From Candidatus Poribacteria bacterium (GTDB lineage Bacteria > Poribacteria > WGA-4E > WGA-3G), in NCBI GenBank assembly GCA_028821605.1, contig JAPPFM010000010.1, positions 248,001 through 312,000 on the forward strand: a DNA stretch of 64,000 nucleotides, in the 5' to 3' direction. The notes below the pieces were generated by a model. It saw only the letters and a list, made by a program, of their open reading frames with translations. It was not told the origin of the DNA and did not search any database. The translations under genes and the position numbers were made by a program. Position 1 is the first letter of the stretch; each line of letters opens with the position of its first letter. Shown piece after piece: positions 48,249 to 50,472 of this stretch.

Positions 48249-49046
48249 CTAACTTTTAAACTTGAAACGATAGGGAATACGGAGACGTTGACTGATAACT
48301 ACGCTGCCCCGTTTCGCTGGCACGAATTGGGACGCTTTGAGTGCCGTGATTGCCGCTTCTTCACACCCTAATCCACTAATTTCAGTCACTTTAACAACTT
48401 TGATGTTTCTCGCTATACCATCTACACCTATTGTCGCTTCGAGCACAACGAGACCCTGTTTGTGGGAAAGCCGAGCAGATTCCGGATATATAGGGTCCAC
48501 TTTGTGAGAGAATTGAGCGTTTTGCGTCGGTTCATTCAAATCTACCGAAACTGATGGAAGTTCTGTGGTATGTACACTCGCAATAATCGTTCGTGTTGAT
48601 GTCCATTCCGGGCGTGATACCCGTTTAGGAGCGAAGCGTGTTGGTTGTGAACCGCGGGCCGCTGGACGTGGAGGTAAACGGTGCTGGAGTGCATTTTCAC
48701 TCCCAGGACTAATTTCTGTGAAGGTTGTCTGGTGAACAACAGAAACTGGGAGCGTATCAGCGACGAATTGCGTTTCGTTTTGTGAGACGTGCGGAATTTT
48801 CGCGATCGTCTGGATACGTGGTGGTTGTGAACGAAGCATATCCGGCTGCGTTAATTCCGGCATCTTGAGCCGACGGGGTGTGAGCACCGCTTTCGTCTTC
48901 GGAAGTGAGATAAACTCCGCAACAAAGGTATCACCGTATTTATCTGGACTTCCAACGATAGACAACGATGCAATCGCAGCACCTATCAGGTGAACGCAGA
49001 TGGATAAAAATATAGATTTGTTCAGAAATTGGATAGCCTTGTTCAT
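48249..49046 (-). CDS. tonB: TonB-family energy transducer
   Basis: 265 residues with an N-terminal membrane anchor (FLSICVHLIGAAIASL, containing the SxxxH-like pattern SICVH) and a Pro/Arg-rich periplasmic spacer. The C-terminal TonB domain reads DPIYPESARLSHKQGLVVLE...VDGIARNIKVVKVTEISGLG...AITALKASQFVPAKR. It couples the inner-membrane proton gradient to outer-membrane receptors. No exbB/exbD or receptor gene is adjacent. It is divergent from the selenoprotein gene. Confidence 0.88.
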   Translation of the reverse strand: MNKAIQFLNKSIFLSICVHLIGAAIASLSIVGSPDKYGDTFVAEFISLPKTKAVLTPRRLKMPELTQPDMLRSQPPRIQTIAKIPHVSQNETQFVADTLPVSVVHQTTFTEISPGSENALQHRLPPRPAARGSQPTRFAPKRVSRPEWTSTRTIIASVHTTELPSVSVDLNEPTQNAQFSHKVDPIYPESARLSHKQGLVVLEATIGVDGIARNIKVVKVTEISGLGCEEAAITALKASQFVPAKRGSVVISQRLRIPYRFKFKS

Positions 49047-49219: not shown

Positions 49220-49248
49220 TTGCAATTTACTGCTGTTTATGGTAAAAT
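49220..49248 (+). promoter_or_regulatory. Sigma70-type promoter of the selenoprotein gene
   Basis: TTGCAA at 49220-49225, 17-base spacer, TAAAAT at 49243-49248. GAGGAGGG at 49286-49293 provides the ribosome site. Confidence 0.65.
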
Positions 49249-49303
49249 TTTATGAGCAACGATTGAATTCACTCGAAATTTAAATGAGGAGGGATAATAC
49301 CCC

Positions 49304-49537
49304 ATGGAAGTGAGAATTGAATACTGCACCGCTTGAAACTACCAACCACGGGCAGCCAGTTTGGCAGATGCCTTGAGACAGAAGTATGGTACGGCGGTTA
49401 AGACAGTTGATCTGATTCCCGGTAGTGGTGGGGCTTTTGAAGTTTCACTAAACGGGACATTGCTCTACTCCAAATTAGAGACTGGACAGTTTCCAACGGC
49501 AGATCAGATAACATCTGCAATAGACGCGGCGGCATAA
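49304..49537 (+). CDS. selW: SelW/Rdx-family selenoprotein (in-frame TGA = selenocysteine)
   Basis: 77 residues if TGA at 49334-49336 is read as selenocysteine (U). The N-terminus reads VRIEYCTAUNYQPRAASLA, with the CxxU redox motif of SelW/SelT/SelH-type thioredoxin-like proteins. Downstream, DLIPGSGGAFEVSLNGTLLY and SKLETGQFP match the conserved Rdx features (PGxGGxFEV, SKxxxGxFP). The frame is open on both sides of the TGA, ends at a TAA, and has a GAGGAGGG ribosome site and a promoter. A hairpin suited to a bacterial SECIS follows the TGA. The role is probably thiol redox. Reading TGA as stop would leave a meaningless 10-residue peptide, so an ordinary gene finder misses it. Confidence 0.92.
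49351..49372 (+). promoter_or_regulatory. Putative bacterial SECIS hairpin
   Basis: Lower stem GGCA/TGCC (49351-49354, 49369-49372), AGA bulge, upper stem GCCA/TGGC, loop GTT beginning with G at 49359, 22 nt after the TGA. Known bSECIS elements have a small loop with a G among the first positions about 16-37 nt from the UGA. Confidence 0.75.
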
Positions 49538-49549
49538 CCAGCGTCTTTA

Positions 49550-49668
49550 GAAGGGCTATCGGCTATCAGTAAATCGGCTCTCGGAACGGAAGGTTGGAAG
49601 ACTGAAAGATTAGGGCATCCATCCTTCCATCCAAATGCTGACACCTGATGGCTGATGGCTATTTTTTA
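49550..49668. repeat. Dispersed GCTATCAG and CCTTCC repeats
   Basis: GGGCTATCGGCTATCAGTAA, GGAAGGTTGGAAGACTG, CATCCATCCTTCCATCC and CTGATGGCTGATGGCTAT in succession, ending just past the lpxI stop. The CCTTCC part matches the repeat inside the GH51-like gene. Confidence 0.65.
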
Positions 49669-50472
49669 TCATTCCACAGCAACGATTGCGATCTTCCACT
49701 GGTCGGCTTGCTGAACGAGCACATCGGCATCCATAACAAAGGTTCGTCGTGCCTCCACTGCCAATACACCTGCTTTGACTTGATGTAACACCTCTAATGT
49801 TTGCATTCCCACTGTCGGCACATCAATACGAAAATCATGATTCTCGGCAGCCGCTTTTGACACAACAACTCCTTTCCTTCCTAAGTTCCCACCTCTCTGA
49901 ATAGTTGCATCCGTTCCTTCAATGGCTTCCATAGCAAGCACAATCTGATTTTTAACGACAACCGTTTGTCCTATATCCATGTTTGCTATTTGGCGGGCGG
50001 TGCTAATACCGAGTTCAATATCCGCCCATTGACTTGCTGTTGGTTGTCGAGTTGTTAAGACGTTGGGTTGTGGAAGAAGGTGGTGCAGATAGCGGTCTTG
50101 GGTGAGGATAGTAAGTCCAGCAGATTCAAGGTAATTGAGTGCTGCGTTGACAATTGCGGTAGGTTTTTCGCGTCGATTCTGTACTAAGATTTTAATGATG
50201 GTGGTATCAATTTGAAATGGACGAAGGAGAATATTTTTTTCGACTTTCCCTATAATAACAACCTCTTTTACGCCTGAATTGAGGAGTGTTCGGGTAATCT
50301 TTTGAATCTGGCCCACCCCATAAGTGTGGAGTTCACAGGCAATTCCGGCAAAGCGTTGCGGGTCGGATTTTGTGATTTGGATGATAACGGGTTGTCTTTC
50401 GTGGGCAACAGCGGCACGTGCTAATAGCACCGGCAGCTTACCTGCACCTGCAATGATACCCAATTTTTCCAT
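49669..50472 (-). CDS. lpxI: UDP-2,3-diacylglucosamine pyrophosphatase LpxI
   Basis: Lipid A pathway enzyme that hydrolyses UDP-2,3-diacylglucosamine to lipid X. LpxI replaces LpxH in many lineages (former DUF1009). 267 residues with GIIAGAGKLPVLLA at the N-terminus, EVVIIGKVEK, VVVKNQIVLAMEAIEGTD with the catalytic Asp region, and a closing GMQTLEVLHQVKAGVLAVEA. The start is preceded by the R-element tail (ACCGCAAGGTAATATAAAAA). Last gene of the minus-strand lipid A cluster. Confidence 0.92.
   Translation of the reverse strand: MEKLGIIAGAGKLPVLLARAAVAHERQPVIIQITKSDPQRFAGIACELHTYGVGQIQKITRTLLNSGVKEVVIIGKVEKNILLRPFQIDTTIIKILVQNRREKPTAIVNAALNYLESAGLTILTQDRYLHHLLPQPNVLTTRQPTASQWADIELGISTARQIANMDIGQTVVVKNQIVLAMEAIEGTDATIQRGGNLGRKGVVVSKAAAENHDFRIDVPTVGMQTLEVLHQVKAGVLAVEARRTFVMDADVLVQQADQWKIAIVAVE

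What the first reader, a model, noticed from the sequence alone, without database searches (positions are those of the whole stretch)
49304..49537. Hidden selenoprotein gene (SelW/Rdx family) with in-frame TGA and bSECIS-like hairpin
Seen: an open frame of 78 codons interrupted only by TGA at 49334-49336 encodes CTAUNYQPRA followed by PGSGGAFEV and SKLETGQFP, the whole Rdx/SelW domain. It has a promoter, a ribosome site and a hairpin whose loop starts with G 22 nt past the TGA. Known: SelW-like proteins carry CxxU or CxxC at this spot. Inference: the organism decodes UGA as Sec, so selA, selB, selC (tRNA-Sec) and selD should be present elsewhere.
Basis: partly seen in the sequence, partly recalled or inferred. 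Interest (0 to 1): 0.85.

Follow-up and report, generated by a model that had tools for sequence, protein, structure and literature searches.

The report
Poribacterial SelW-like selenoprotein gene with bSECIS
The finding is real: this sponge-associated bacterium (Candidatus Poribacteria) carries a small redox-protein gene in which the 'stop' codon TGA is read as the 21st amino acid, selenocysteine; the protein family and the mechanism are already known, but I found no paper describing it in this phylum.

Summary
Window 49304-49537 (+) encodes a 77-residue Rdx/SelW protein (PF10262, E 1.4e-25, positions 1-73 of 74) with one in-frame TGA as the U of a CxxU redox motif. The genome (a Poribacteria assembly, 98% complete) has tRNA-Sec (anticodon TCA), selB next to it, selA, and a selD that also holds one TGA. 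Of 60 genomes searched (own included), 54 carry the gene, each with that single TGA and none with Cys. Of 65 loci in named genomes across many phyla, 64 have TGA and one Cys. The frame after the TGA is under purifying selection (dN/dS about 0.11). The hairpin meets all four published bSECIS constraints. Fold energy alone does not show it (z -0.7), but comparison does: the loop G is invariant (70/70) and the 4-bp stem forms in 69/70 distinct sequences, with compensating exchanges, against 15% under synonymous codon randomisation. SelW-like CxxU selenoproteins are a listed bacterial family, so this is a new member of a known kind. The genome also appears to encode Sec peroxiredoxins and a Sec AhpD/CMD-like protein.

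The parts
49220..49248 (+). sigma-70-like promoter, TTGCAA - 17 nt - TAAAAT, with TG before the second hexamer
   Evidence: Consensus scan, 9 of 12 matches; a similar CTTGCAATTT...GGTARAATTTT block precedes the gene in most congeners printed.
49287..49292 (+). ribosome-binding site AGGAGG, 11 nt before the ATG
   Evidence: Read from the sequence; AGGAGG stands shortly before the ATG in all 14 sequences printed.
49304..49537 (+). SelW-like/Rdx selenoprotein gene, 77 residues plus TAA stop, one in-frame Sec codon (U11)
   Evidence: Pfam PF10262 E 1.4e-25, NF041051 and TIGR02174; one TGA in each orthologue in 54 of 60 genomes; dN/dS 0.09 before and 0.11 after the TGA.
49325..49336 (+). CxxU redox motif, Cys8-Thr-Ala-Sec11
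   Evidence: Translation; Cys8 and position 11 (U or C) are invariant in a 24-sequence alignment across phyla; L139 and the solved homologue 2fa8 carry Cys at position 11.
49334..49336 (+). TGA read as selenocysteine
   Evidence: tRNA-Sec, selA, selB and selD are in the genome; TGA is conserved in every orthologue and homologue read except L139, which has Cys.
49350..49373 (+). bSECIS hairpin: stem GGGCA (49350-49354) + GCCA (49355-49358), loop GUU (49359-49361), UGGC (49362-49365), bulge AGA (49366-49368), UGCCU (49369-49373)
   Evidence: Fold -10.5 kcal/mol, pair probabilities 0.66-1.0; core pairs and loop G conserved in 69-70 of 70 distinct sequences; synonymous divergence in codons 12-22 is reduced, pS 0.12 vs 0.45 further downstream.

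Best explanation
This is a functional bacterial SelW-like (Rdx-domain) selenoprotein gene. A promoter just upstream transcribes it as a single gene. When the ribosome reaches the UGA at 49334, SelB (encoded beside tRNA-Sec) binds the hairpin at 49350-49373, in which the loop G is the invariant base, and delivers Sec-tRNA, so UGA is read as selenocysteine. The product is a 77-residue thioredoxin-like protein with a CTAU (CxxU) active site. It most likely acts as a small cytosolic thiol/selenol oxidoreductase, forming a Cys-Sec selenenylsulfide during catalysis. Shown here: the gene, the conserved TGA, the conserved hairpin, the Sec machinery and selection on the downstream frame. Inferred: actual Sec insertion, SelB binding, the fold, the redox activity and its substrates.
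For: Rdx domain complete across the TGA. tRNA-Sec 78 bits with TCA anticodon, selB 353 bits about 0.3 kb away on the same strand, selA 600 bits, selD 359 bits with a TGA of its own. 54 of 60 genomes carry the gene, every full match with one TGA. SelW and SelB presence co-vary: 51 of 54 with SelW have SelB, against 2 of 6 without (Fisher p 0.001, uncorrected for kinship). dN/dS about 0.1 on both sides of the TGA. Hairpin core paired in 69/70 distinct sequences and loop G in 70/70; where residue UGA+8 is Ser the codon is AGT in 64/64, against 50 of 297 Ser codons elsewhere in the genes. bSECIS constraints met: loop 3-9 nt, stem 4-16 bp, G in the first two loop positions, spacing 16-37 nt, MFE at most -7.5 (PMC13188914). 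Synteny with lpxI in nearly all near relatives and with the TonB-like gene in most.
Against: No expression or mass-spectrometry data. The hairpin's folding energy is ordinary, and in a few relatives (e.g. L026, L041) the predicted minimum-energy fold differs in part or whole. Some assemblies with the gene lack tRNA-Sec (G024, G030, G033, G042) or SelB (G003, G027, G042); all are draft assemblies, and only G042 (80% complete) lacks both. The substrate is unknown.
Confidence: 0.96

Rival explanations
1. A decaying pseudogene in which TGA is a true nonsense mutation of a Cys codon.
For: A stop codon early in the frame.
Against: The same TGA is in every orthologue in 54 of 60 genomes and in nearly all homologues from other phyla, with dN/dS about 0.11 after it, no other stops in the frames, and intact Sec machinery.
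Confidence: 0.01
2. UGA is read as another residue (Trp, Gly or Cys) through a changed code, or by leaky read-through, not as Sec.
For: The frame is open if UGA is read as any residue.
Against: A single TGA, at the catalytic Cys/Sec position; tRNA-Sec with UCA anticodon and full sel genes; the bSECIS hairpin is conserved. TGA sits at catalytic Cys positions in peroxiredoxins and SelD of the same genome, while the selA and selB frames have no stop inside.
Confidence: 0.02
3. Translation restarts downstream (TTG 49361) and makes a 58-aa protein without the CxxU motif.
For: A 58-aa ORF exists.
Against: The 10 codons before the TGA and the CxxU motif are conserved (dN/dS 0.09; Cys8 invariant); the RBS lies before the ATG at 49304 in congeners; a product without the motif would lack the family's active site.
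Confidence: 0.01

Closest known systems
Bacterial SelW-like / SELENOW-like selenoprotein (PF10262 Rdx, TIGR02174 CXXU_selWTH)
   Same: Full Rdx domain, CxxU motif, about 77 residues, bSECIS directly after the UGA; listed in PMC13188914 (PF10262, CxxU) and described in PMC1088965 and PMC1794560.
   Different: Host lineage only (Candidatus Poribacteria); about 40-55% identical to members found in other phyla.
NF041051 SelTWH_Campy (SelT/SelW/SelH family (seleno)protein; compare epsilonproteobacterial SelW in PMC4607533)
   Same: Passes the curated cut-off (89.1 vs 88 bits); PMC4607533 reports SelW genes with SECIS elements there, some missed entirely by annotation.
   Different: Other phylum; score only just over the cut-off.
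Rdx proteins with solved structures (2fa8 Atu0228, 2ljk C17orf37/MIEN1; 2npb selenoprotein W)
   Same: Same domain and same motif position.
   Different: Cys replaces Sec in the two homologues whose alignments were printed (2fa8, 2ljk); 2npb is only a weak match by sequence (E 0.002).

Membership tests
Bacterial SelW-like selenoprotein (Rdx) | Rdx domain (PF10262) over its curated cut-off | tested here: met
   89.7 vs 22.6 bits, profile positions 1-73 of 74.
Bacterial SelW-like selenoprotein (Rdx) | CxxU motif with in-frame UGA aligned to Cys of Cys homologues | tested here: met
   CTAU; Cys at the same place in L139 and in 2fa8.
Bacterial SelW-like selenoprotein (Rdx) | UGA and downstream frame conserved in orthologues | tested here: met
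   54 of 60 genomes, each with one TGA; dN/dS about 0.11.
Bacterial SelW-like selenoprotein (Rdx) | bSECIS: loop 3-9 nt, upper stem 4-16 bp, G in the first two loop positions, 16-37 nt spacing, MFE at most -7.5 kcal/mol | tested here: met
   Loop GUU, 9 bp with a 3-nt bulge, G first, 22 nt, -10.5 kcal/mol; constraints from PMC13188914; covariation.
Bacterial Sec-decoding trait | tRNA-Sec, SelA, SelB and SelD in the genome | tested here: met
   All over the curated cut-offs.
Bacterial SelW-like selenoprotein (Rdx) | Sec actually present in the protein; redox activity | not testable with these tools
   Needs 75Se labelling, mass spectrometry or an enzyme assay.
Thioredoxin-like fold | Fold with CxxU between the first strand and helix | not tested
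   Inferred from sequence relation to solved Rdx structures; no structure was predicted.

The most novel reading that the evidence does not exclude
Poribacteria hold SelW as a core gene kept only in the Sec form, lost together with the Sec machinery rather than converted to Cys, as part of a redox-centred selenoproteome (Prx, Prx-like, AhpD/CMD, SelD, SelW) that may serve life in a sponge host; [quoted passage not shown]
Probability: 0.45. Interest if true: 0.4.

Novelty: new member of a known kind. Interest (0 to 1): 0.25.

Why it matters
It shows that raw-sequence reading can recover a small selenoprotein gene that table-11 ORF calling misses, and it documents Sec decoding across an uncultured phylum of sponge-associated bacteria. 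The SelW-like bSECIS is a neat example of RNA structure constraining codon choice: the loop G and, nearly always, its AGT codon persist across phyla. Mechanistically it is ordinary.

Tried and rejected
Rfam scan of the window gave no match. Single-sequence folding energy was uninformative (z -0.69), so covariation and a synonymous-codon null were used instead. No phage record encodes it. A scan of the 10.6% of the window outside long open frames found eight other TGA-interrupted frames, none of which resembled a known family by eye; they were not searched further. Pseudogene, reassigned-code and restart readings were rejected on conservation. Structure prediction was not run, as the sequence relation to solved Rdx proteins was enough.

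Full report
Observation. The frame 49304-49537 (+) is open except for TGA at 49334-49336. Read with TGA as Sec, it is 77 residues and matches Pfam Rdx (1.4e-25, profile 1-73 of 74) and the NCBIfam SelT/SelW/SelH families. A table-11 ORF finder returns only a 58-aa piece after the TGA. A promoter-like site lies at 49220-49248 and AGGAGG at 49287-49292; similar elements recur upstream of orthologues.

Genome. The window is part of a 6.0-Mb, 98%-complete assembly. Its nearest named relatives are all Candidatus Poribacteria (97% protein identity to JAJECN010000034.1). The assembly holds tRNA-Sec (78.1 bits, TCA anticodon), selB about 0.3 kb away on the same strand (352.9 bits; layout), selA (600 bits) and selD (358.6 bits, one TGA). 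The selD TGA lies in KCAGUASK, so selD itself looks like a selenoprotein gene.

Conservation. Of 60 genomes searched (own included), 54 carry the gene, and every full match has exactly one TGA; no Cys form was found although the query had Cys at that place. A scan of named genomes, whose patterns flank but do not include position 11, gave 65 loci from Poribacteria, Gemmatimonadota, Acidobacteriota, Chloroflexota, Binatota, Planctomycetota, Rossellomorea and others. Reading them, 64 have TGA and one, from Defluviimonas (L139), has Cys. Selection is purifying on both sides of the TGA: dN/dS 0.09 before, 0.11 after. SelW and SelB co-occur: 51 of 54 against 2 of 6; Fisher p 0.001, not corrected for kinship. 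G051 (95% complete), G055 and G059 lack SelW, tRNA-Sec and SelB together, as does the 83%-complete G034.

Hairpin. The RNA after the UGA folds at 49350-49373 as GGGCA-GCCA, loop GUU, UGGC, bulge AGA, UGCCU, at -10.5 kcal/mol with pair probabilities of 0.66-1.0. The loop starts with G, 22 nt past the UGA. This meets the published bSECIS constraints (PMC13188914). Energy alone proves nothing (z -0.69). Across 70 distinct 45-nt sequences, the four core pairs are formed in 69, with exchanges C-G/G-C at one pair, C-G/U-A/U-G at another and G-C/A-U at a third; the loop G is invariant. 279 of 280 pair cells are standard, against at most 269 in 2000 shuffles. Randomising synonymous codons at each gene's own GC3 keeps the core in only 15%. 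Where residue UGA+8 is serine its codon is AGT in 64 of 64, although AGT is only 50 of 297 serine codons elsewhere in these genes. Synonymous divergence over codons 12-22 is 0.12, against 0.45 in codons 23-76. These sequences are related, so the counts are not independent events, but the exchanges occur in different phyla.

Context. The gene lies alone on the + strand between a TonB-like gene (48249-49046, -) and an lpxI-like gene (49669-50472, -); both names are from my reading of the sequences. The lpxI-like gene sits beside it in almost all near relatives and the TonB-like gene in most. So it looks like a single-gene unit, not part of an operon, and the neighbours do not point to a substrate.

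Mechanism. Established knowledge of bacterial Sec decoding (SelA charges tRNA-Sec with selenium from the SelD product; SelB brings it to the UGA on binding the hairpin) fits every piece found. The protein should work as a small CxxU oxidoreductase. Sec insertion, activity and partners are inferred.

Novelty. SelW-like CxxU selenoproteins with bSECIS are an established bacterial family: 48 Sargasso Sea sequences (PMC1088965), 10 in PMC1794560, epsilonproteobacterial cases some of which annotation missed (PMC4607533), and a listed entry in PMC13188914. No held paper has both 'Poribacteria' and 'selenoprotein'; PMC5649159 notes that SelA and SelB co-occur in most sponge symbiont bins but are missing from most related references. 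The contribution is a new lineage, not a new kind. The same genome has TGA at catalytic positions of several AhpC-TSA peroxiredoxins, two of them adjacent, and of a CMD/AhpD-like protein, all known selenoprotein families.

Noticed in passing
G000:C2:244890-245708 (-), L145/L149: Two adjacent peroxiredoxin frames, each with TGA at the catalytic position (DFTGGU-TAELC and DFGRGU-TAQVC) and a hairpin after it: a likely tandem pair of Sec peroxiredoxins.
   Followed up: partly
G000:C10:318959-319333 (+), L146; G000:C16:5797-6168 (-), L148: Prx-like frames with UxxC motifs (GGWUPFC, GTUGTC); further likely selenoproteins, the first about 7 kb past the window's end. Two further AhpC-TSA matches with one TGA (C41:236763, C2:214557) were not read.
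   Followed up: partly
G000:C50:152956-153147 (-), L153: CMD/AhpD-like frame with CHYU (CxxU): likely selenoprotein.
   Followed up: partly
G000:C30:71300-72223 (-), L077: selD is itself interrupted by one TGA in KCAGUASK, so the Sec pathway probably makes its own selenophosphate synthetase with Sec, a known arrangement.
   Followed up: partly
G012:C607:1-108 and 208-438: A partial, stop-containing second copy of SelW faces the main copy at a contig end; probably an assembly artefact.
   Followed up: no
49560-49665: The stretch after the gene holds near-repeated short words (ggaaggttggaagactgaaag, tccatccttccatcc, tgatggctgatggct), like a small repeat element; no terminator was found there.
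   Followed up: no
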